Assembly (NCBI GenBank): GCA_016182605.1 | Contig: JACPGE010000104.1 | Coordinates: 1 to 64,000 of the forward strand | Origin: Candidatus Hydrogenedentota bacterium | GTDB lineage: Bacteria; Hydrogenedentota; Hydrogenedentia; Hydrogenedentales; JAEUWI01 | Length of the DNA stretch: 64,000 bases | Direction: 5' to 3' | Part shown: one piece after another, positions 50,832 through 62,389 of the stretch | Numbering within the stretch: position 1 is the stretch's first letter | Layout of the letters: each line of letters begins with the position of its first letter | Program-made: the position numbers and the translations under genes | Notes under the pieces: generated by a model | The model's input: only the letters and a program-made list of their open reading frames with translations | What the model was told of the DNA's origin: nothing | Databases searched by the model: none

Positions 50832-51818
50832 CTACTCCATGGGATAGCGCAGGCCCCACTGGGCGCGGATCGTGTCCATGATGGTCATGACTTCGATGGT
50901 GCGCGCGTGGGTCATGGTGGGGCTCTCCAGGCGGCCTTCGCGCAGGCAGCGCATGACCTCCAGGGCCTGGTACTGCATGCCGTTGCCGGGCATGGGGCAT
51001 TCGGCAACGAGCGGTTCTTCGTCTGGACGCAGCAGCGTGGCGCGGCGCGAACACCAGAAGGGCGAGTGGATGTGGATCATGCCGGCCTCGCCCTCGATGT
51101 AGGCGTCGTAATTGGTGGCCGTGGCGATGGCGGACGAGAGCACGGCCAGTTCTCCCCGATCGTATTTCAGAAGGAACGCGGCCTGCTCGTCCACCCCGGC
51201 GGGTTCCATGCAGGCGGCGCTCTGAATGGAGACGGGGGTCTTGTCCAGCATGAAGGCTGCGAGGGCAATGGGGTAGACGCCGACATCCAGGAGGCTGCCG
51301 CCGCCGAGCGTCTTGTCGCGGAGGCGTCCGCGCTCTTCGTCGTCCATGCGGAAACCGAAGTTTGCATGGAGCATCCGCACGGCGCCGATGCGGCCCTCGT
51401 CCACCCAGGACTTTGCCTGCGCCACGGCGGGGATGAACCAGGTCCACATGGCTTCCATGATGAAACGCTGCTTTGCCTGCGCCACGGCGAAGACGGCCTT
51501 CGCCTCGGCGCAGTTGATGGCAAAGGGCTTCTCGCAGAGCACGGCCTTGCCGGCATTCAGTGCGAGTATCGAATGTTCCTGGTGGAAATTGTGGGGCGTG
51601 CCCACATAGATGACATCCACTTCGGGGTCGGCCGCGAGCGCCTCGTAGGAGGTGTGCCGGTTGGGAATGCCATACTTGCCGGCAAAGGCATCGGCCGAGG
51701 CCTGCGTGCGGGAACCCACCGCCTGAATCACGGCGCCCTCGGCGTGTTTCAGGTCGGAGGCGAATTTGTTGGCAATGTTTCCCGTGCTCAGTATGCCCCA
51801 GCGAATCTTGTCCGGCAT
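50832..51818 (-). CDS. Gfo/Idh/MocA family oxidoreductase (cytosolic)
   Basis: A 328-residue NAD(P)-dependent sugar oxidoreductase. It has an N-terminal Rossmann motif GILSTGNIANKF, the mid motif YVGTPHNFH, and CEKPFAINCAEA, where the lysine of EKP is catalytic. No signal peptide. Members oxidise or reduce hydroxyls of sugars or inositols. It resembles the dihydrodiol/xylose-dehydrogenase-like branch. A GGAAAG ribosome site lies 8-13 nt upstream. It follows the fucosidase gene by 32 nt, so it probably handles a sugar released by it. Confidence 0.88.
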   Translation of the reverse strand: MPDKIRWGILSTGNIANKFASDLKHAEGAVIQAVGSRTQASADAFAGKYGIPNRHTSYEALAADPEVDVIYVGTPHNFHQEHSILALNAGKAVLCEKPFAINCAEAKAVFAVAQAKQRFIMEAMWTWFIPAVAQAKSWVDEGRIGAVRMLHANFGFRMDDEERGRLRDKTLGGGSLLDVGVYPIALAAFMLDKTPVSIQSAACMEPAGVDEQAAFLLKYDRGELAVLSSAIATATNYDAYIEGEAGMIHIHSPFWCSRRATLLRPDEEPLVAECPMPGNGMQYQALEVMRCLREGRLESPTMTHARTIEVMTIMDTIRAQWGLRYPME

Positions 51819-51850
51819 GTGGTTTCTTTCCGAGGTTGGCGGTTGTGCGT

Positions 51851-53164
51851 TTATTGCAGTTTGAACACATAGGCATGCCGGCAGGGCATGGCGTCGACGT
51901 GCAATGCGGGCGGCGTAATGTGCACGATGCCGCTGTCCTGACGCAAGTCGAGGGCGCCTTCGTGCCCGAGCAGGGTGGCGGAGGTGAAGGGTTGCTCTGA
52001 TGGGAACTCGATGCCTGCTTCGGGCCACTTCAGTGCGATGGCGTAGATGACGCCGTCTTTCTGGGTGAAGCGAAGGCCCTCCACTTTGGGCGCGTCGTTC
52101 CAGGCGCTTGTGCCGTAGATGCCCTCGCCGTTCACTTTGAGCCACTCGCCCATGTCGACGAGACGCTGCTGCATGATGACGGGAATGCGCCCGTCTGCCG
52201 TGGGGCCGATGTCCAGCAGCAGGTTGCCGCCGCGGCTCACGTTGTCGATGAGCAGGTGAAGCAGTTCGGTGGCGCTGCGGTAGCTGTCCACGTTTTCATT
52301 GCGGTTGTAGCCGAAGGATCGGCCCATGCCCTGGCATTCCTCGAAGCGGCCGGATTGAATGAGGCCGCCCTCGGTGATGTGGCCATACTCGGGCGTGGCG
52401 AAGCCGCCGTGCACGTTGCGGCACTCTTTGCCCCAGCGGTCGTTGATCGCGATGTCCTTGGGGGCGTTGCTGTCGTTGAAGAGCCAGGCGAGGAATTCCG
52501 TGCTGCGCCAGGTTTCGCTGGGGTGTTCCCATTCGCCATCGGGCCAGATGATGTCGGGCCGATAACGGGTGACGAGGTCTTTCAACTGGGGCAGCATGTG
52601 CGCGTCGACGTAGCGGTTCACGTCCTTCTTGTAGAGCGGGTTGAACCACTCGTAGAGGGAGTAGTAGAAGCCCATCTTGATGCCTTTGCCGCGCACGGAC
52701 GCGATCAGATCGCCGCAGAGGTCGCGGCCGGGGCCCGCCTGCATGCTGTTCCAGTTCCAGGCCTCATCGTTGGGCCACAGCGCGAAGCCTTCGTGGTGTT
52801 TCGAGGTCAGCACGATGTACTTGGCGCCGGAACGGGCGAAGAGGTCCGCCCATTCATCGGGATTGAACATTTCAGCGCGGAAGAGCGGCGCGAAATCCTG
52901 GTACTTGAAGTCCGCGCCGTAGGTGGCGTCGTGAAACTTCCGGGTCTCCCCCTTTTCATCCATCATGTCGTGCCAATACCATTCGGCGTAGCGGTCTTTC
53001 GGTCCCCAGGCGGGCACGGAATAGAGCCCCCAATGGATGAAGATGCCGAATTTTGCCTCGCCGAACCAAGCGGGATTTTCCCGTTTGTCGAGACTTTCCC
53101 ACGTAGGTTCGAAAGGGGCGCCGAGCGCCACGGCAGTCAGCAGGGCCGCAAGCATTGTGTTCAT
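51851..53164 (-). CDS. Alpha-L-fucosidase (GH29)
   Basis: A 437-residue exported glycosidase with a signal peptide (about 1-15, ending LGA). GH29 marks are FGIFIHWGLYSVPAW (about 38-52), AKYIVLTSKHHEGFALW, the nucleophile in IIWPDGEW (D209), and LLLDIGPTADGRIP. It should release alpha-linked L-fucose from glycans in the periplasm or outside. The length is normal for the family. The start at 53164 opens the signal peptide. It lies between two Gfo/Idh/MocA genes in one operon. Confidence 0.92.
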   Translation of the reverse strand: MNTMLAALLTAVALGAPFEPTWESLDKRENPAWFGEAKFGIFIHWGLYSVPAWGPKDRYAEWYWHDMMDEKGETRKFHDATYGADFKYQDFAPLFRAEMFNPDEWADLFARSGAKYIVLTSKHHEGFALWPNDEAWNWNSMQAGPGRDLCGDLIASVRGKGIKMGFYYSLYEWFNPLYKKDVNRYVDAHMLPQLKDLVTRYRPDIIWPDGEWEHPSETWRSTEFLAWLFNDSNAPKDIAINDRWGKECRNVHGGFATPEYGHITEGGLIQSGRFEECQGMGRSFGYNRNENVDSYRSATELLHLLIDNVSRGGNLLLDIGPTADGRIPVIMQQRLVDMGEWLKVNGEGIYGTSAWNDAPKVEGLRFTQKDGVIYAIALKWPEAGIEFPSEQPFTSATLLGHEGALDLRQDSGIVHITPPALHVDAMPCRHAYVFKLQ

Positions 53165-53233
53165 GGGTCTTCCCCCGTCCGCCCGGTGGCGCGCCACCAA
53201 ACCACGCTGCCGGATCGATGGTTGAGTTTGCGT

Positions 53234-54535
53234 TTATTCCGGATCCAGGGACCAGGGCGCGCGGTACGCGTAGTGCAGCAACGCGTTTGCCTCTTGGGGC
53301 CGGAGAATGCGTTCGTTTTCCGCGTCCCATTCTACGCGTGAGCGGGTGGCCAATGCGATGTTGGCGAGGTGCGCGAAGATGGTGGATTTGTGGCCATCTT
53401 CGATGTCCGCGTTCGGACGTTCCCGGGTCTTGATGCAATCGAGAAAATTGCGCATGTGGGCGGTGCTCAGGTCTTCGTTGCCGGCGGGATCCTCCACGGT
53501 TCTGGGCTCCAGCCGTGGCGCGGGATCCTGGAACTGGCCGCCCCTTTCCGGAAAGATACGGTAGTCTTTGCCCCCGGCGTAGATCACGCCCTGGGTGCCG
53601 CGCAGTTCGAACTCGCCGTGCTGCAGCATCGGGTGCCCGCTGGCCTCATACTGTCCGAACAGCATCAGCCGCCCCGACTTGAACTCGAAAATGGATTCCA
53701 GGGTGTCGGGGATCGTTCTGTCGTCATCGATTACGAACTTGCCGCCGTGACACGAGACCGATTCCGGCGCATCTTCATCGAGCAGCCACCGGATGACGTC
53801 GAAGTAGTGAACGCCCCAATTGCCCAGTTGGGAGGAGTAGGCCTTCCACCAGCGGAATTTATAGGGCGCAATGTTCTCCTGGTAAGGGCGATTCTGTTGC
53901 GGGCCGAGCCAGCGGTTCCAGTCGAGCGTGGGCGGTTTTGCGCCCGGGGAGGCCTTGCCAATGCCGTTGGGGTACATGTTGCTCAGGCGGTAGGCGCGGC
54001 CGATGGAGACCTTGCCGACGACGTTATTCCGGAGTTCCTCCCGGAGTTGCATAAACAATTTGGAGGAGCGCCGGTGCAACCCCACCTGCACGACGCGCCC
54101 GGTCTCCCGCGCCACGTCCAGCATTTTGCGCCCCTCGACCACGGTGAGGGAGAGGGGCTTCTCCACATAGACATCCTTCCCCGCGCGGCAGGCGTCCACG
54201 CAGTGAATGGCGTGCCAGTGATCCGGTGTGGCGATGACCACCGCATCGATGTCCGGACGCTCCAGCAATTGCCGGTGGTCGTTATAGATGGCGGTGTTCT
54301 TGCCGAGTTTGTCAACCCATTCATAACAGCGCGCCTCGTCCACATCGCAGACAGCCACGATTTCGGCGTCGGCATGGGGCTGGGTTGCGGCGATCAACTG
54401 ACCGCCCCGGTTCGCCACGCCGATGAAGCCCAGGCGAATACGCTCATTGGCGCCCAGCGCGGATGCCGCGGCCAGGGTAGACACGCCGGCAGCGGTAGAC
54501 TGCCGGAGGAAGGAACGGCGGGAAACGGAATTCAT
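53234..54535 (-). CDS. Tat-exported Gfo/Idh/MocA oxidoreductase
   Basis: A 433-residue protein. The N-terminus is a twin-arginine signal (SRRSFLRQS, then an alanine-rich helix), so it folds with its NAD(P) before export to the periplasm. The Rossmann motif GFIGVANRGGQL, ATPDHWHAIH and VEKPLSLTV are typical of the Planctomycetes-type Gfo/Idh/MocA proteins. Some Tat-signal members (GH109) are NAD-dependent glycosidases, so hydrolysis rather than plain oxidation is possible. The start at 54535 gives the Tat signal; other in-frame Mets lie 15 and 63 nt upstream. It heads the operon with the fucosidase. Confidence 0.87.
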   Translation of the reverse strand: MNSVSRRSFLRQSTAAGVSTLAAASALGANERIRLGFIGVANRGGQLIAATQPHADAEIVAVCDVDEARCYEWVDKLGKNTAIYNDHRQLLERPDIDAVVIATPDHWHAIHCVDACRAGKDVYVEKPLSLTVVEGRKMLDVARETGRVVQVGLHRRSSKLFMQLREELRNNVVGKVSIGRAYRLSNMYPNGIGKASPGAKPPTLDWNRWLGPQQNRPYQENIAPYKFRWWKAYSSQLGNWGVHYFDVIRWLLDEDAPESVSCHGGKFVIDDDRTIPDTLESIFEFKSGRLMLFGQYEASGHPMLQHGEFELRGTQGVIYAGGKDYRIFPERGGQFQDPAPRLEPRTVEDPAGNEDLSTAHMRNFLDCIKTRERPNADIEDGHKSTIFAHLANIALATRSRVEWDAENERILRPQEANALLHYAYRAPWSLDPE

Positions 54536-54866
54536 GGGCAAGCTCTCCATAGGATAGAAGGAGATTCTAGAAATTCCCGGAGATGAAGTCCAGTGCACGC
54601 TGGAACTTCCGGCGCATTTTTGGCAGTTTTCACGCTTGGCGCCAGGAGCCCGTGAAAATGGTACACTTAAGCGAATGCGGCGTGTGCCTGTGTGGTGCTA
54701 TTTTCCGGGGGCGCAACGGAACCGGAAAATAAGCGTGGTCAAACGGGCGCAACTGTGTTACCGTGAAAGCAGTGGGCTACACTTGGGTCAACCGCAAGTA
54801 CAGGGCTAAAGCGCGGGCGTGACACTCTTGGTGGGTGGTGATTCGCCGGGCGCCGGAGGAGTCGCC
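54536..54866. other. Divergent intergenic region with a 10-bp palindrome
   Basis: Separates the Tat oxidoreductase (-) from the PilZ gene (+). It holds TATTTTCCGG (54699-54708) and its exact reverse complement (54722-54731), with a 13-nt loop. No T-tract follows; an operator or RNA structure is possible. No gene is seen. Confidence 0.45.
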
Positions 54867-55262
54867 ATGCTTATGGAACAACAAGCCGAACAGCGGGAGT
54901 GTTCTCGCTGTCCAGTCGAAGCGCGGGCCGAGTTGCGTTTGAGCACCGGGGTCTTGATCGAGGGAGCCGCGGTAAACTTGAGCATGAATGGAATGCTCTT
55001 CTCCACGGAACGCACCCTGCCGATGAATCATGACGTGCATGCAACGATCATTCTGGAGCTGGACGGGATAGAGTGCCGCATTGACACCTACGGGGTGGTG
55101 GCGCGCGTGGATGAGGGGCAAGTAGCGGTTCAATTCCAGCAAATCAGCGCGGGCAGCCTCGATCAACTGCGGCAACTCGTGATATACAATGGAAGCGGCA
55201 CGGAGCGTTCAAGCGGCGGACAGAAGACCGCAATAGGGAAGAAAGCGCAACGGGAGCAATAA
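54867..55262 (+). CDS. PilZ domain protein
   Basis: A 131-residue single-domain PilZ protein. The c-di-GMP-binding pieces are RECSR (RxxxR, 10-14) and NLSMNGMLF (the [DN]xSxxG motif, about 40-48). It probably responds to cyclic di-GMP and acts through a partner. The start at 54867 has GGAGG 9 nt upstream; an earlier in-frame ATG at 54819 lacks one. The C-terminal 20 residues are basic and low-complexity. Downstream, after 69 nt, is the acyltransferase-hydrolase gene. Confidence 0.88.
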   Translation: MLMEQQAEQRECSRCPVEARAELRLSTGVLIEGAAVNLSMNGMLFSTERTLPMNHDVHATIILELDGIECRIDTYGVVARVDEGQVAVQFQQISAGSLDQLRQLVIYNGSGTERSSGGQKTAIGKKAQREQ

Positions 55263-55331: not shown

Positions 55332-57581
55332 ATGGCGTCGACATTTTCGCTGAGTCTGACGAAGTGGTCGTTGGACTTGGCGACGAAACTCATCAAGGCG
55401 GATGTGCGCCTGCACAACGTCGAGGCCATCAAGGATGACATGGCAATCATCTTTGTGGTCAATCATTTCACGCGTCTGGAGACGATACTGCTTCCCTATG
55501 TGATCAACAAGCACACGGGGAAGGAGGTTTGGGGGCTTGCCGCGGCAGAGCTGTTCAAGGGCAAGATCGGCGAGTTTTTGAAATCGACGGGGACGATTTC
55601 AACCAAGGATCCCGACCGCGACACCATTATCATCCACAGCCTCCTCAAAGGCCAGCACCCGTGGATGATCTTTCCCGAAGGCGCCATGATCAAGGACAAG
55701 AAGGTCGTCGATCATCGCGGGGAATTTCAGGTCTACAACGACGGCCAGCGCCGCCCGCCCCACACCGGCGCGGCCGTGCTCGCCCTGCTCGCGGAATACT
55801 ACCGGCACAAGATCCAGTGCCTTGCGGATCGGCCCGGCAGCGAAGATCTCCCCCGCGCGCTGAAACTTTTCGACCTGACGGCGCCCGAGGAGGTGCTCTC
55901 CAAGCGGACGGTCATCATCCCCGTGAATATTACCTACTTCCCGATGCGCTCCGGCGAGAACGTCCTGATGCGCATGGCAAACCGGGTCGCCCAAGACCTG
56001 AGCCCGCGCGCCATGGAAGAGCTTTCCGTGGAGGGAACGGTAATCTCCGAAGAAACGGATATCGACATCTCGCTCGGCGATCCCATCGACGTGCGCGAGT
56101 ATCTTGCGGCCCCCGAATACGCGGAACTCATGGCCTGCGGCCTCAACGATTTCAAGGCCCTGGAGGAGGAGCCCAGTTCGGTTTTCAACAATGCCGCGCG
56201 CAAGCTCATGCAGCGCTACATGCGCGAGATCTACCAGCTCACCACAATCAACTTCGATCACCTCTTCGCAACGATTATCCGCCACCAGGGAACCCGAGCC
56301 TTCACCGAGCGCATGTACCGCAACCGGATTTTCCTCTGCGCGCGCCAGATCCGCGATCTCGGCTACCACCGCCTTCACACCATCCTCGAAAAGACGCACC
56401 GCGCGCTCGTCTATGAAGACGAGAGCCCCAAGTTTCAGAACTTCATGACCCTGTGCCTGAAGGAGGGGGTGCTGCTCCAGGACGGCGAGTACTTCCGCAA
56501 AAATCTGGACGCGGAGCGGATCCAGGCCGGGTTCCACGATATCCGCTTCAAGGAACTGACCGAAGTCATTGCCAACGAGATCGAACCCCTGGGCAAGCTT
56601 ACGGAGATGATCCGGCAGGTCGCGCGCATGCCGCGCTTCCTGCTTTCCAAACGCATCCGCGATATCTTCATCGAGGAAGATCTGCGCTACTTCGAAACCG
56701 ATTACGCGCGCTTCTACATCGCCGGCGAAACCAAAGGGCCCGATGTGGGCCGCCCCTTCCTCCTGAAACCCATGCGCATCCGCGCCGGCGTGGTCCTCGC
56801 GCATGGCTACATGGCCGCCCCCCTCGAAGTCCGGGCGCTCGCCGAATACCTCTACCAGCAAGGATATGCCGTCTACGCAGTGCGCCTCCGCGGCCATGGC
56901 ACCTCCCCCGAAGATCTCGCCCTGTGCGAATGGGAAGACTGGTATGAGTCCTTCAACCGGGGCTACGCCATCATCAAAAGCCTTACCGACAACATCATTC
57001 TCGGCGGCTTCTCGACCGGAGGCTGCCTCGCGCTGATGGGCGCCGCACGCAAACGCCAAAAAGTGCAGGCCGTGTTCTCCATCTGCGCGCCGCTCCAGGT
57101 CCGCAATTATTCGATCCGGCTCGTGCCCTCGATCGTCTCCCTCAACTCAATGCTCAAAAAAATCGGCCAGAGCCGCGATTCATGGGAATATGTCGTGAAT
57201 GAACCGGAGAACAAACACATCAACTATGTGCGCAACCCGCTGACCGGCGTTTCGGAGCTGGTCGCCATCATGGGAAAAACGGAATCCCTCCTGCCGGAAG
57301 TCCAGATACCCGCCTTGATTATCCAGGCTTCAAAAGATTCCGTCGTCAACCCCGCAAGCGGCCAGTTGATCTTCGACCGGATTACGAGTCCCTGCAAAGA
57401 ACTGACCCTTTTTGAGCGCGCCCGCCATGGCATCGTCAATGGAGAGGGCCGCGAGGACATCTTCGCGCGGGTCCACGAATTTCTCAAGCGGGCCCCAGGG
57501 CACGGGATTGGGCTGCGCCTAACGGAAGATAGCCCAACGGAAGGGGCGGCCCACATGGACGACGAAGCGCTGGCGGGATGA
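55332..57581 (+). CDS. Acyltransferase-alpha/beta hydrolase fusion protein
   Basis: A 749-residue protein with two catalytic parts. Residues 30-300 are a PlsC-type glycerolipid acyltransferase: NHFTRLET (H45, with Glu at 50 in place of the usual Asp) and FPEGAMIKDKK (114-124). Residues 480-730 are an alpha/beta hydrolase of the monoacylglycerol-lipase/serine-aminopeptidase type: LAHGYMAAP, RGHGTSP, the nucleophile in GFSTGG (S561), the acid in ASKDSVVNP and the histidine in RHGIVNG. A helical linker lies between. No signal peptide. Both acyl transfer and acyl removal in one chain suggest lipid remodelling; substrates are unknown. Third codon positions shift from G-rich to C-rich here compared with the left half of the window. 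Confidence 0.85.
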   Translation: MASTFSLSLTKWSLDLATKLIKADVRLHNVEAIKDDMAIIFVVNHFTRLETILLPYVINKHTGKEVWGLAAAELFKGKIGEFLKSTGTISTKDPDRDTIIIHSLLKGQHPWMIFPEGAMIKDKKVVDHRGEFQVYNDGQRRPPHTGAAVLALLAEYYRHKIQCLADRPGSEDLPRALKLFDLTAPEEVLSKRTVIIPVNITYFPMRSGENVLMRMANRVAQDLSPRAMEELSVEGTVISEETDIDISLGDPIDVREYLAAPEYAELMACGLNDFKALEEEPSSVFNNAARKLMQRYMREIYQLTTINFDHLFATIIRHQGTRAFTERMYRNRIFLCARQIRDLGYHRLHTILEKTHRALVYEDESPKFQNFMTLCLKEGVLLQDGEYFRKNLDAERIQAGFHDIRFKELTEVIANEIEPLGKLTEMIRQVARMPRFLLSKRIRDIFIEEDLRYFETDYARFYIAGETKGPDVGRPFLLKPMRIRAGVVLAHGYMAAPLEVRALAEYLYQQGYAVYAVRLRGHGTSPEDLALCEWEDWYESFNRGYAIIKSLTDNIILGGFSTGGCLALMGAARKRQKVQAVFSICAPLQVRNYSIRLVPSIVSLNSMLKKIGQSRDSWEYVVNEPENKHINYVRNPLTGVSELVAIMGKTESLLPEVQIPALIIQASKDSVVNPASGQLIFDRITSPCKELTLFERARHGIVNGEGREDIFARVHEFLKRAPGHGIGLRLTEDSPTEGAAHMDDEALAG

Positions 57582-57834
57582 AAATATAACTGCGCAAAGG
57601 GCGCAAATACAGAATACTGCCCGATTCTAATTGACACTTTTTGGAGGTCTGTGCTACTTTCTTCCCACTTTCCCGTGCAGACTAAGGCTGCAGCCCCGGC
57701 CGTCTCAATCTTGCGCCGTGGCGTGTACCGCGAATAGACTATGGACTTTCCAGAACCTGCGCCCCGCCTTGCCTGCATCCCAGACCGTTCGGGGCAATTC
57801 AAACGGACGCGGTTCGAAACCGTGGATGGTGACT

Positions 57835-59550
57835 ATGAATAGACATGCTCAGGTAGCGGTGCTCACCGCGTCACTTGCCCTTCTCCTTGCCGCCTCTCCC
57901 GCATTTGCCTGGGGGCCACGCGCCCAACAGAGCATTACGGCCATGGCCATGCAGGTAATCAAACGGGATCACCCAGAGGTCTTCACCCCGGGCGACAAGA
58001 CCTACGAGCTGGAAGTGATCACCGGCGCGCGCGACGGCGTGGCAATCCTCGCAGGCGATCTCCCCATGAACTCCGATGCCGAGGTCGTTCAGGCCGTCTC
58101 CTCTGAACTGCAGTTGCTCCACGACGTCCGCCGTTTTGGCCCCACCTCCTACTTTGCCTACCGGATGGGCGTCCTCTCGGCCCTGGTGGCCAATGCCGCA
58201 GTGCCCCTGGGTTTTGCATGGTCCGACGAGGATGTGGCGATTCAACAGACAATCAACGTGCGCATCGACGAAAAACTGGATTCCTTCGGCTACCTCAGCG
58301 ATGGCGGCCAATTGACCTCCATCCGGGAAATCCGCGAATACTTCAAGGAACGCCGGCCCTTCATGCAAGACGACGCCGTGCTGATCCGGGACGATTTCAA
58401 ACGCGGCTCGGGATTTGACGGGTACATCAACAGCAGTGCGCAAACCTATTTTGACCGCTCGGTGGCCATGGTTGCCGACGTCTGGCACACGGTATTCGAG
58501 CCGAACAGCGCGGCCAGCGGAGTGCCCGCATCGAAAAACATGCTCACGTGGTATTTCGTGAAGGAAATCGCCTTCTTGCTGGAGGCGAAGAAAAACTTTC
58601 ACCAGGCGGAGAAGTCCTATGAAAGCTTTGAGCAGGTGAACAGCGACGTCAGTGAAGCCTTCGACGAGATCGGCGACCTGTTTTACGAATTCGGATCCAG
58701 CGAGGCCATTGAACGTGGCGTCCGGGAATGGCGCATCGCATACGACATGGGCGGACCGGCCCGCCGGGAAGTTTCGGAGAAACTCTCTGCCCACTATATC
58801 AAGCAAGGCAGCGCCTACCTCGAAAAGGCGGCACAGCCCGGATCGGAAGAGACCGATCTGCCCAATGCGCTGACAGCCTTCGAACAGGCGCTGGATTTCA
58901 ACCGGGGCAGCGACGAAGCAGCCAACCTTATCCAGGAAACCCACAAGGCGATGGCGGAACGGAAAGCGCGCTTCGAACTGGCCGTGAATCTGATTGCCTC
59001 CGCGGAACGCGTACAAAAAGAAGGCGACAACCAGGTGCTCGCCGAGGATTTCGGCGGGGCTATTGTAACCTATGAACGCGCCAAGGGATTTTACGAGACC
59101 GTGACCGAAGAGTTTACCGAGCTTTCCAACGCCTCGAAGTCCGGCGTTTCCAAGGTGAAAAAAGCGGTCGGCGAAGTCATCCTGAAAGTTCAAAACAAGG
59201 CCAACGACGCCATTGCAAAGGGCGACCAGCTTCAAGAAGAAAACAATTACCCGGCCGCCGTGCAAGAGTACAGCCGGGTCGATGCCATACTCGGCGTCAT
59301 CCCCCCCAACTACAGCCAGGTGGTGGATGCCGACACGAAAAAAATACGGGATCTTGCCCTCACCGACATCGATGAAGCGCGCAAAAACGAAGAGCGCTGG
59401 AAGGCGGCCCAAGAGGCGGCGGCCAAGGCCGCGCAGGGCGGTGGCGGGGGTGGCGCTGGAGGTGGTGGTGCAGGCGCAGGGGGCGGGGCTGCGGGTGCAG
59501 GTGGTGCCGCTGCGGGTGGTGCCGCCGCTGGCGCCGCGAACAAGCAGTAG
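57835..59550 (+). CDS. Exported protein, zinc-PLC/P1-nuclease-like N-terminus with helical repeats and Gly/Ala tail
   Basis: A 571-residue exported protein. The signal peptide ends AFA, leaving Trp as mature residue 1 (WGPRAQQSI), as in zinc-dependent phospholipase C/P1 nucleases, where that Trp binds zinc. The following AGDLPMNSD and VADVWHTVFEP are reminiscent of later zinc ligands, but the GH-type histidine is replaced by Gln, so activity is doubtful. Residues 230-520 are TPR-like helices (EKSYESFEQVNSD, LEKAAQPGSEET). The last 45 residues are Gly/Ala repeats. The start at 57835 has GGATGG 8 nt upstream. Role unknown; a structural envelope protein is possible. Confidence 0.7.
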   Translation: MNRHAQVAVLTASLALLLAASPAFAWGPRAQQSITAMAMQVIKRDHPEVFTPGDKTYELEVITGARDGVAILAGDLPMNSDAEVVQAVSSELQLLHDVRRFGPTSYFAYRMGVLSALVANAAVPLGFAWSDEDVAIQQTINVRIDEKLDSFGYLSDGGQLTSIREIREYFKERRPFMQDDAVLIRDDFKRGSGFDGYINSSAQTYFDRSVAMVADVWHTVFEPNSAASGVPASKNMLTWYFVKEIAFLLEAKKNFHQAEKSYESFEQVNSDVSEAFDEIGDLFYEFGSSEAIERGVREWRIAYDMGGPARREVSEKLSAHYIKQGSAYLEKAAQPGSEETDLPNALTAFEQALDFNRGSDEAANLIQETHKAMAERKARFELAVNLIASAERVQKEGDNQVLAEDFGGAIVTYERAKGFYETVTEEFTELSNASKSGVSKVKKAVGEVILKVQNKANDAIAKGDQLQEENNYPAAVQEYSRVDAILGVIPPNYSQVVDADTKKIRDLALTDIDEARKNEERWKAAQEAAAKAAQGGGGGGAGGGGAGAGGGAAGAGGAAAGGAAAGAANKQ

Positions 59551-60593: not shown

Positions 60594-61931
60594 TCAGACT
60601 TCCACGGGAACCGCATAAGGTTCGCGGTAAACCCGGGTCAGATGGGAATTGGCCTCGTCATCGTTCTTGACCATTTCCTTCTCCGTGTCGATCTCCAAGA
60701 CGCGGTTCACGCGGGCGCCCGTCAGGGCGTAGTGAGAAAGCGCGGAAGAGTAGTGCCCGTCGATGGCCTTGGAGGTGATGTTTTCCGCCTTCCGGTCCCG
60801 CACGCAATCGAGGAAGTTCTGGAAGTGGTTGACGGTGGATCCCTCCATGTCCTCTTCCGTGAGCTTGCCTTCCAGGAAGAGTTTGTAGCCCTCGTATTCC
60901 GGGAAGGACATATAGCCTTTCGTGCCGTAGAAGAGCACGCCAAACGACGAGCCGCCGGCCTCGTCGTTCGAGTACCAGGGGCGCACTTCCAGCGTCAACA
61001 TCTTGTCCTTGCCCGTGGCCTTGTCCTTGAACATGTAAGAGGTCGAAGAGACGTCGAAAACTTCTTTGTAGTCATGCCACAGCAGCAGGCCGCCCATCGA
61101 GGTAACGCGGTACGGCACTTCCACACCGAGGCCCCAGCGGGCCGCGTCAAGCTGGTGCACCCCCTGATTGCCAATGTCGCCATTGCCGTAGGCCCACTTC
61201 CAATGCCAGTAATAATGCGCGTGGGCGCCTTCGCCCTTTTCATTGGCGTAATACGGCTCCGCCTGCGCCGGCCCCTGCCACACGTCCCAGTTCAATTCCT
61301 TCGGCGGATCGGCCACATGCGCCTTGCCGACATCCGGCCGCCACTTGTAGCACACGCAACGCGCCATGTACACGTCGCCAATGACCCCGTCCTTCAGCTT
61401 CTGGATGCCGCGCTGGAACCCGGGATTGCTGCGCAGTTGCACGCCGTGCTGCACGATGCGCTGGTATTTCTCCGCCGCGGCCACGACCTGACGGCCTTCA
61501 AAAATGTTGTGCGTCATCGGCTTTTCCACATACACATCCTTGCCGGCCTGGCAGGCCCAAATCGTGGCCAGGGAATGCCAGTGGTTCGGCGTGGCGATCG
61601 AGATGACGTCGATGTCCTTGTCTTCCAGCACGCGCCGGAGATCCTGCTCGGTCTTGGGCTCGGATTTCTGCTTGTCGGTGAAAAAATCCTTGATGCGGGG
61701 TGCGAAGAGGCGCGCGTCTGGATCGCAGAGCGTCGTCACTTCCGTATTGGCGGTCTTCGCGTAGCACGAAAGGTGCTCTTTGCCTCGCCCATTGATCCCC
61801 AGGACCGCCACCCGGACACGCTCATTGGCGCCGGCCCACGAGGTTTTCGAGGTGCCAATCAACAACCCTGCCGCAGCGCCGGCCGCCATGCCGGAGTGCT
61901 TGAGAAATGAACGGCGGCTAACTTCACTCAT
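60594..61931 (-). CDS. Tat-exported Gfo/Idh/MocA oxidoreductase
   Basis: A 445-residue protein with a twin-arginine signal (SRRSFLKHS, then an Ala/Gly helix, about 1-32). Then come the Rossmann motif [25 protein letters not shown] and VEKPMTHNI. The C-terminal half has [20 protein letters not shown], common to the Planctomycetes/Hydrogenedentota-type exported members. It should act on a sugar or glycoside in the periplasm, with a tightly bound NAD(P). The start at 61931 sets the Tat signal. It is a single-gene unit closed by a strong terminator. Confidence 0.88.
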
Positions 61932-62389
61932 GATAGTCGGTCTCCCTGGTCGGTATGATCGAAAAACGGCTTTTTCGAGGCGCCGTCCTTCGGATTGCGT
62001 ATGCATCAGGATAGACCAATCCCCCGAAAACTTCAAATGCAATATCCCCTGGAAGCGGCGCTGCGGGGAGGGGGACTGGCGGAACGAGGGGATCGATTTA
62101 TGCGTTTGGGGCGGGTGGCTGTGCTGGGGCGGCGCTCTCGGACTCCCATTCGGAAATGGAAGCTGCGTGGGGAGAATTCAATGGAGGAGGGGTCTGCTTC
62201 TATCGTTTGAGAGGTCGCTTGGAGATGGGCTCCTCAAGTAGGCCTTCGCTCGATGAGCGCAGGCATGGGCGGCCTCCGGTCCGGTGTGTACTTGCCCCTT
62301 ATTCGTATGTATTGGCGTTCATTCGTGGTCTGATTGCTGGCCTGGTTCCTGGAGGAATCAAACCACGAATGAACGCCCCGTTCTGAAGT
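61932..62389. other. Intergenic region with no gene seen
   Basis: It lies between the Tat oxidoreductase start and the histidine kinase stop. No frame looks coding. Its only strong feature is the palindrome at 62314-62377. Confidence 0.5.
62314..62377. repeat. Long hairpin, 22-bp arms
   Basis: Arms 62314-62335 and 62356-62377 pair in 21 of 22 positions; the outer 16 (GGCGTTCATTCGTGGT) are exact. The loop is 20 nt. It ends 13 nt before the kinase stop codon, but on the minus strand no T-run follows, so it is more like a REP/palindromic unit than a terminator. Confidence 0.7.

What the first reader, a model, noticed from the sequence alone, without database searches (positions are those of the whole stretch)
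55332..57581. PlsC-type acyltransferase fused to an alpha/beta hydrolase
One chain carries an acyltransferase (with NHxxxxE in place of NHxxxxD) and a monoacylglycerol-lipase-like hydrolase with intact Ser561. Enzymes that add and remove acyl chains would normally be separate. The fusion, next to a PilZ gene, may be a lipid-remodelling or storage-lipid enzyme.
Basis: partly seen in the sequence, partly recalled or inferred. Interest (0 to 1): 0.55.

Follow-up and report, generated by a model that had tools for sequence, protein, structure and literature searches.

The report
Bacterial acyltransferase-lipase fusion enzyme
This gene joins, in one protein, an enzyme half that resembles those attaching fatty acids to glycerol phosphate and a half that resembles those cutting fatty acids off; the same joined protein is found in several bacterial phyla, sometimes beside lipid-turnover genes, which makes a fatty-acid recycling enzyme the likeliest reading.

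Summary
In detail: window 55332-57581 encodes one 749-aa chain, acyltransferase then alpha/beta hydrolase. It is no misassembly: of 51 matching genomes among 68 of its phylum (Hydrogenedentota, judged from relatives), 39 carry both halves in one ORF, 5 in pieces cut at contig ends, 7 only the hydrolase. The N-half, nearly always in a frame long enough for the fusion, occurs in 37 of 297 Desulfobacterota and 34 of 198 Spirochaetota genomes sampled. NHxxxxE is the family's signature, not a lesion (21 of 21 profile-found ORFs). The acyltransferase folds most like human GPAT1 (Z 16.5), so 'PlsC-type' undersells it; the hydrolase has a bacterial monoacylglycerol-lipase fold (Z 34). The acyltransferase has decayed on three branches and is missing in one clade while the hydrolase stayed constrained. 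GDPD abuts the fusion in 12 of 14 loci of one clade and, separately, in a divergent branch; PilZ precedes it in 20 of 43 Hydrogenedentota loci. Best reading: a glycerolipid acyl-recycling enzyme (lysolipid deacylation, GDPD, re-acylation of glycerol-3-phosphate). Substrates are inferred. Storage-lipid function is unsupported. New variant of a known kind.

The parts
55332..57581 (+). fusion gene, 749 aa: acyltransferase + alpha/beta hydrolase
   Evidence: full-length relatives
55332..56231 (+). acyltransferase catalytic region (residues 1-300), PF01553 at 25-155
   Evidence: fold matches to GPAT1/PlsC/PatA/LpxM
55461..55481 (+). motif I, NHFTRLE (N44-H45-x4-E50), catalytic dyad by analogy
55671..55682 (+). 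FPEG motif (residues 114-117)
56232..56651 (+). mostly helical region (residues 301-440) after the core; GPAT_C-like sequence at 244-357 is below the Pfam cut-off
   Evidence: GPAT1 match has first and last aligned model residues 8 and 441
56664..57506 (+). monoacylglycerol-lipase-like alpha/beta hydrolase domain (residues 445-725)
57012..57014 (+). nucleophile Ser561 (GFSTG)
57336..57338 (+). acid Asp669
57426..57428 (+). His699
54819..55262 (+). PilZ-domain gene with the motifs RECSR and NLSMNG (c-di-GMP motifs, recalled); PilZ is an upstream neighbour in 20 of 43 Hydrogenedentota fusion loci
57631..59550 (+). downstream gene of unknown function, conserved beside the fusion in 11 of 38 loci; no Pfam match in the window copy; likely start ATG 57835 with a signal-peptide-like N-terminus (by eye)

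Best explanation
A bifunctional, soluble or peripheral enzyme of glycerolipid acyl turnover. SHOWN: the chain is a GPAT1-like acyltransferase with a family-specific NHxxxxE motif, followed by a monoacylglycerol-lipase-like serine hydrolase with an intact triad; the fusion is conserved in Hydrogenedentota, Desulfobacterota and Spirochaetota. INFERRED: the hydrolase half removes the remaining acyl chain from lysophospholipids or monoacylglycerols; a GDPD, encoded beside the fusion in some lineages and elsewhere in the genome in others, turns the glycerophosphodiester into glycerol-3-phosphate; the acyltransferase half re-acylates glycerol-3-phosphate (or a lysolipid) from acyl-ACP or acyl-CoA. 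The two halves would then be the first and last steps of one salvage path rather than enzymes undoing each other. The PilZ gene in the window's lineage suggests, but does not show, control by c-di-GMP.
For: Fold of residues 1-444: human GPAT1 8e4y, Foldseek E 1.8e-6 (the only match at E <= 0.001), VIA Z 16.5, rmsd 4.4, 320 residues aligned between model 8 and 441, ahead of PlsC (12.1), algal and plant GPAT (11.6-11.2), PatA (up to 11.0) and LpxM (8.5). GPAT_C matched at E <= 0.01 by 31 of 70 members, best 3.6e-7. Hydrolase: bacterial monoacylglycerol lipases, Z about 34; Ser and Asp in 39 of 39 and His in 38 of 39 Hydrogenedentota rows (the other is cut at residue 698 by a contig end), all three in the 50 further rows. 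NHxxxxE: His kept in 34 and Glu in 38 of 39 Hydrogenedentota rows; both in 50 of 50 further rows, of which 17 have Met or Val at position 49 and so cannot have been fetched by the acyltransferase seed pattern; both in 21 of 21 ORFs found by profile. GDPD directly upstream on the same strand in 12 of 14 loci of one clade (Pfam-checked in L127, PF03009 1.7e-56) and directly downstream in a divergent branch (L181, 4e-44); in G073 and G074 the adjacent GDPD is the only PF03009 match of the genome. Acyl-CoA dehydrogenase genes next to it in three f6 loci and about 0.5 kb upstream in divergent L183. In the window's own genome an Aas-like MFS-acyltransferase-AMP ligase is followed, 3 bases on, by a separate MGL-like hydrolase: the same pairing, unfused.
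Against: No substrate is shown. No GDPD was found by profile in the held Hydrogenedentota loci, though G000 has 7 PF03009 matches elsewhere; Spirochaetota-labelled loci carry a NUDIX gene there instead. PlsY is present in 13 of 16 genomes searched, including G000, and two of the three without it (G011, G031) lack a working acyltransferase half, so the fusion is not a stand-in for PlsY. The acyltransferase has decayed on 3 branches and is absent in 7 hydrolase-only genomes, so the hydrolase can serve without it. The best-matched hydrolases are MAG lipases and carboxylesterases, not proven lysophospholipases. A few divergent members have altered hydrolase triads. The relative placing of the two domains was not assessed (no PAE shown).
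Confidence: 0.5

Rival explanations
1. Transacylase / ester synthase like plant phytyl ester synthases: the hydrolase half takes the acyl group from a membrane lipid and the acyltransferase half places it on another alcohol, making a neutral ester or triacylglycerol without acyl-CoA.
For: Known precedent of hydrolase plus acyltransferase in one chain (passages of PMC12526585, PMC12048435). G000 and G046 have WS/DGAT genes, so neutral lipids are plausible there.
Against: The acyltransferase is GPAT1-like by fold and no PF03982 (DAGAT) match was listed at E <= 1; domain order reversed; no WS/DGAT match in 9 of 11 genomes searched; GDPD neighbourhood points to glycerophosphate chemistry.
Confidence: 0.15
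2. The hydrolase is the working enzyme; the acyltransferase half is a lipid- or acyl-carrier-binding module, non-catalytic at least in part of the family.
For: Acyltransferase motifs lost in f6 (4 genomes), G009/G010, and G045/G043; half absent in 7 f3 genomes; in these lineages identity falls far more in the N-half than in the hydrolase: f6 vs f1/f2 14 vs 48%; G009/G010 vs intact sisters G007/G008 49 vs 77%, against 59 vs 69% between intact f3 genera.
Against: In the other lineages motif I, FPEG and P197 are near-invariant, which a mere binding module would not need.
Confidence: 0.15
3. Opposed activities in one chain: the halves set the level of one acylated product (lysophosphatidate or monoacylglycerol), switched by c-di-GMP through the neighbouring PilZ protein.
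For: PilZ upstream in 20 of 43 Hydrogenedentota fusion loci, with [DN]xSxxG found in all 20 PilZ hits; no PilZ hit in the loci of the 7 hydrolase-only genomes.
Against: No PilZ hit precedes any of the 50 further loci (two of them hold no upstream bases; the profile came from Hydrogenedentota PilZ and could miss distant ones). PilZ also stays beside the f6 and G009/G010 fusions whose acyltransferase is degenerate, so it is not there only to choose between two activities.
Confidence: 0.1

Closest known systems
GPAT1 / PlsB glycerol-3-phosphate acyltransferases (PF01553 + PF19277)
   Same: Best fold match, reaching from the catalytic core into the following region (8e4y, Z 16.5); weak GPAT_C sequence signal
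   Different: Glu instead of Asp in motif I; far below the PlsB model cut-off (TIGR03703, 14.3 of 618.5 bits); fused to a lipase
PlsC / AGPAT lysophosphatidate acyltransferases
   Same: PF01553, NHx4 motif, FPEG
   Different: Extra region after the core, Glu in the motif, lower fold score (5kym Z 12.1)
Bacterial monoacylglycerol lipase (Bacillus sp. H257 and relatives)
   Same: Fold (Z about 34, 25-29% identity) and Ser-Asp-His triad
   Different: Here the C-terminal half of a larger enzyme; substrate untested
Plant and algal phytyl ester synthases (PES / ELT)
   Same: Hydrolase-like region and acyltransferase domain in one chain; H and D/E in motif 1 (PMC12526585 passages)
   Different: Acyltransferase of the DAGAT family, hydrolase region first; chloroplast enzymes
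LpxM lipid A acyltransferase
   Same: HX4E dyad (PMC3087551 passage; the PDB title of 5knk calls E127A a catalytic residue substitution)
   Different: Different family and substrate; fold Z 8.5 only

Membership tests
PF01553 Acyltransferase superfamily | Pfam gathering score | tested here: met
   33.5 bits, cut-off 23; 69 of 70 aligned N-halves match at E <= 0.01
PlsB / GPAT | HxxxxD in motif I (recalled) | tested here: not met
   NHxxxxE wherever motif I is intact, except that 1 of 39 Hydrogenedentota rows has Asp at position 50 (an f6 row without NH)
PlsB / GPAT | NCBIfam PlsB model cut-off | tested here: not met
   TIGR03703 14.3 bits, cut-off 618.5
PlsB / GPAT | GPAT_C domain (PF19277) | tested here: inconclusive
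   22.1 bits in the whole protein, cut-off 25; 31 of 70 relatives at E <= 0.01
PlsB / GPAT | GPAT1-like fold | tested here: met
   8e4y Z 16.5, 320 aligned, rmsd 4.4
PlsB / GPAT | acylates glycerol-3-phosphate | not testable with these tools
   needs an assay
Monoacylglycerol lipase / Hydrolase_4 | Pfam gathering score | tested here: met
   PF12146 89.9 bits, cut-off 27
Monoacylglycerol lipase / Hydrolase_4 | Ser-Asp-His triad in GxSxG context | tested here: met
   window S561, D669, H699; Ser and Asp 39 of 39, His 38 of 39 (one row cut by a contig end) and all three in 50 of 50 further rows
Monoacylglycerol lipase / Hydrolase_4 | bacterial MGL fold | tested here: met
   5xks, 7e04, 4ke8, 3rm3 at Z 33.7-34.2
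Monoacylglycerol lipase / Hydrolase_4 | monoacylglycerol hydrolysis | not testable with these tools
   needs an assay
Phytyl ester synthase (PES/ELT) | DAGAT-type acyltransferase domain (PF03982) | tested here: not met
   no match listed at E <= 1
Phytyl ester synthase (PES/ELT) | hydrolase region N-terminal to acyltransferase | tested here: not met
   order is reversed (PES order from PMC12526585 passages)

The most novel reading that the evidence does not exclude
A hitherto undescribed enzyme class: one chain that performs the first (lysolipid deacylation) and last (glycerol-3-phosphate re-acylation) steps of a phospholipid salvage path, with GDPD as the detached middle step, using a Glu-based GPAT active site, and in Hydrogenedentota tuned by c-di-GMP through a dedicated PilZ partner; evolution has repeatedly discarded the acylating half while keeping the deacylating one.
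Probability: 0.22. Interest if true: 0.72.

Novelty: new variant of a known kind. Interest (0 to 1): 0.5.

Why it matters
Phospholipid turnover in Desulfobacterota, free-living Spirochaetota and the uncultured Hydrogenedentota is little charted (from general knowledge). A conserved single-chain deacylase/acyltransferase with a GDPD partner would give a testable recycling route, a Glu-type GPAT to dissect, and natural variants (acyltransferase decayed, acyltransferase lost, one duplicate with the hydrolase serine replaced) that separate the two activities. It also warns against annotating such genes as plain PlsC or plain lipase.

Tried and rejected
Misassembly or chance fusion: rejected. Dead acyltransferase because of Glu: rejected for the intact family; degeneration accepted for f6, G009/G010, G045 and G043. 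Split-gene case in G043: first taken as separate genes and in my notes; rejected, since the two ORFs run to the two contig ends and share the stretch ASNVTYRRVKE; so G043 is a fusion with a degenerate acyltransferase, and its row labelled 'alone' in the tree is mislabelled. Housekeeping GPAT: unlikely, PlsY is in 13 of 16 genomes. Neutral-lipid marker WS/DGAT does not track the fusion (2 of 11). A profile of the N-half found no PDB sequence at E <= 1; the fold search did. Whole-chain fold searches were filled by the hydrolase, so the N-half was folded alone. The single-sequence scan of genome contigs found no relative; the alignment scan did. Tree polarity: the root is a midpoint between very long outgroup branches and several deep forks are open, so 'loss' rests on parsimony (the other-phylum rows are all fused). 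Genome counts are lower bounds, since at most 5 and 8 first-look candidates per genome were scored. Paper searches listed no description of a bacterial acyltransferase-hydrolase fusion of this kind (I judged from titles and abstract starts); subscription journals are mostly not held, so this is weak evidence of absence. Rows dropped: A3 used the window plus 71 of the 74 references (L094, L121, L150 left out); A4 also left out L102 and L103 (degenerate acyltransferase); A1 and A2 used 25 of the 39 Hydrogenedentota fusions; the 80 loci are the best 80 of 410.
Full report
WHAT IS THERE. Window 55332-57581 (+) is a single 749-codon ORF. Pfam places Acyltransferase at 25-155, a weak GPAT_C at 244-357 (22.1 bits, below its cut-off of 25) and Hydrolase_4 at 483-703. 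The fusion is single-copy in the 6.76 Mb genome G000. No 19-residue stretch is hydrophobic enough to suggest a membrane span (highest Kyte-Doolittle mean 1.37), so a soluble or peripheral protein is likely.

IT IS A CONSERVED FAMILY, NOT A MISASSEMBLY. Of 68 genomes of the phylum, 51 match at E <= 1e-20. Reading all 51: 39 hold both halves in one ORF (two of these, in G019 and G054, are clipped by a contig end); 5 hold pieces cut at contig ends (G032, G037, G038, G040, and G043, the last shown; in G037 only the N piece was found); 7 (G004, G005, G006, G011, G012, G015, G017) have only the hydrolase half, inside contigs, and a profile of the N-half finds nothing in them at E <= 1e-5. The other 17 genomes show neither half at these thresholds. 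A pattern scan of genome contigs gave 410 stretches encoding relatives, of which the best 80 were kept; 76 of the 80 hold both halves in one ORF of 700 aa or more, and the other four (L099, L100, L107, L124) are pieces cut at contig ends. By profile, 37 of 297 genomes of the phylum of L156 (Desulfobacterota) and 34 of 198 of the phylum of L116 (Spirochaetota) have the N-half, in open frames of 667 aa or more but for two of 347 and 369 aa; both halves were present in the 21 ORFs of the 20 such loci that I read. The phylum of the window is taken to be Hydrogenedentota from the record titles of its closest relatives; the window's own record is unnamed.

THE GLU IS THE RULE. Motif I reads NHFTRxET. 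H45 is kept in 34 of 39 and E50 in 38 of 39 Hydrogenedentota rows. A further 50 rows come (48 form one clade with Desulfobacterota, Deltaproteobacteria, Proteobacteria and Spirochaetota labels; L098 and L104, labelled Sumerlaeota and Omnitrophota, sit among Hydrogenedentota): N, H, R48 and E50 are present in 50 of 50. The scan used [VAP]N[HY]FTR[LIT]ET as one of two seeds, so this count is partly selected; but 17 of the 50 have Met or Val where that seed demands Leu, Ile or Thr, so they came through the hydrolase seed, and all 17 have the motif. A set found by profile gave 21 of 21 ORFs with NHxxxxE, including very divergent ones. Glu in this place is catalytic elsewhere: LpxM has HX4E (one passage of PMC3087551) and the PDB title of 5knk calls E127A a catalytic residue substitution. 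Three other acyltransferases of G000, read by eye, have NHxxxxD.

STRUCTURE. AlphaFold2 gave the whole chain at mean pLDDT 84.3, pTM 0.85 and residues 1-444 at 82.5 and 0.85. The hydrolase matches bacterial monoacylglycerol lipases at Z about 34 over some 240 residues. Residues 1-444 match human GPAT1 (8e4y) best: Foldseek E 1.8e-6, Z 16.5, rmsd 4.4, 320 residues, first and last aligned model residues 8 and 441; PlsC of Thermotoga has Z 12.1 over 188 residues, algal and plant GPATs 11.6-11.2, PatA up to 11.0, LpxM 8.5. So the N-half is GPAT1-like, including a region after the core, although it fails the PlsB sequence models (14.3 of 618.5 bits) and lacks their Asp: I call it GPAT-like, not a PlsB.

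THE HALVES EVOLVE UNEQUALLY. In the 39 Hydrogenedentota fusions and the 50 further rows the hydrolase Ser, Asp and His are kept, apart from one row cut by a contig end before the His. The acyltransferase has decayed in f6 (4 genomes: NH and FPEG gone), in G009/G010 (FPEG gone, NH kept), in G045 (NH to ND, FPEG to FPAG) and in G043 (NH to NR, FPEG gone), and is absent from 7 f3 genomes. On the hydrolase tree these are three decayed branches (f6; G009/G010; G045 with G043, 100/99) and one hydrolase-only clade (91/99, drawn with an open fork) (with G043 relabelled). Identity shows the decoupling: f6 against f1/f2 14% in the N-half and 48% in the hydrolase; G009/G010 against intact G007/G008 49 and 77%; as a control, intact f3 genera against each other 59 and 69%, and f1/f2 among themselves 67 and 66%. 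The hydrolase is not sacrosanct everywhere: among the 21 divergent ORFs, 17 have Ser, Asp and His; L187 and L188 have Glu for the Asp; L193 is cut before it; and in a tandem pair in G161 (L180) one copy has GFGMG for GFSMG and Asn for the Asp while its acyltransferase motifs stand.

NEIGHBOURS. In Hydrogenedentota a PilZ gene lies within 2 kb upstream on the same strand in 20 of 43 fusion loci: f1 4 of 7, f2 3 of 3, f3 5 of 8, f6 4 of 4, f7 1 of 1, f8 2 of 2, f11 1 of 11 (1.2 kb away), f4 0 of 1, f5 0 of 6; one f3 locus was too short to tell. No PilZ hit appears in the loci of the 7 hydrolase-only genomes. [DN]xSxxG is present in 20 of 20 PilZ hits and an RxxxR before it in 19 of 20, by a loose pattern. 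No PilZ hit precedes the fusion in the 50 further loci, two of which (L123, L129) hold no upstream bases; two weak hits lie downstream (L131, L143). A downstream gene of about 560 aa (C1) accompanies the fusion in 11 of the 38 loci compared; the window copy has no Pfam match at E <= 1 and a relative only sub-threshold TPR hits. Elsewhere: GDPD directly upstream in 12 of 14 loci of one clade (mostly Syntrophaceae- and Deltaproteobacteria-labelled), the two exceptions being L120 (NUDIX) and L134 (Pfam-checked in L127 only); GDPD directly downstream in divergent L181, 1 of 20 loci; NUDIX upstream in 11 of 11 Spirochaetota-labelled loci and 2 of 3 Spirochaetota loci (Pfam-checked in L119). In G073 and G074 the adjacent GDPD is the only PF03009 match in the genome. 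None of the held Hydrogenedentota loci has a GDPD hit.

HOW IT MOST LIKELY WORKS. Shown: architecture, conserved catalytic residues, predicted folds, distribution, neighbours. Inferred: the hydrolase strips acyl chains from lysolipids or monoacylglycerols; GDPD yields glycerol-3-phosphate; the acyltransferase re-acylates it. Two placements of GDPD (upstream in one clade, downstream in another branch) are the strongest hint that glycerol-3-phosphate is the link. Against it: no GDPD beside the gene in the window's phylum, NUDIX rather than GDPD in Spirochaetota, PlsY in 13 of 16 genomes, with two of the three PlsY-less ones lacking a working acyltransferase half, and lineages that do without the acyltransferase. 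I give the acyl-turnover reading 0.5 and the full three-step salvage path with PilZ control 0.22.

WHAT IS KNOWN. Plant and algal phytyl ester synthases combine a hydrolase-like region and an acyltransferase domain (passages of PMC12526585 and PMC12048435), so a chain that joins the two activities is not unheard of; but theirs is DAGAT-type, in the opposite order. The listings of nine searches showed no paper that describes this bacterial family.

Noticed in passing
57631-59550 (+): Downstream gene (C1), found beside the fusion in 11 of 38 loci, no Pfam match in the window copy and only sub-threshold TPR hits in a relative; the N-terminus after ATG 57835 looks like a signal peptide by eye.
   Followed up: partly
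L175 91-3381 and L002 1312-2289 (genome contig C80): In the window's own genome an Aas-like MFS-acyltransferase-AMP ligase gene is followed after 3 bases by an MGL-like hydrolase with a hydrophobic N-terminal stretch (by eye): the same pairing of activities, unfused.
   Followed up: partly
L180 2103-4277 (-) and 4345-6510 (-): Tandem duplicate of the fusion in a Desulfobacterota genome; one copy has Gly for the nucleophile Ser and Asn for the Asp, which suggests the copies have divided the two activities.
   Followed up: partly
L048, L049, L050: Three f6 fusions with a degenerate acyltransferase half lie directly before an acyl-CoA dehydrogenase gene.
   Followed up: partly
L106, L108, L111, L112, L114, L116, L117, L119, L120, L121, L132: A small NUDIX gene abuts the fusion upstream in all 11 Spirochaetota-labelled loci; its link to lipid metabolism is unexplained.
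   Followed up: partly
Mislabelled bins or gene transfer.
   Followed up: no
G000:C110:150282-151076: The window's genome has a WS/DGAT gene (PF03007), so neutral-lipid synthesis is possible there by another enzyme.
   Followed up: no
50832-54598 and 60594-62042: Gfo/Idh/MocA-like oxidoreductase ORFs and a fucosidase-like ORF around the locus (named from reading the translations, no family search made).
   Followed up: no
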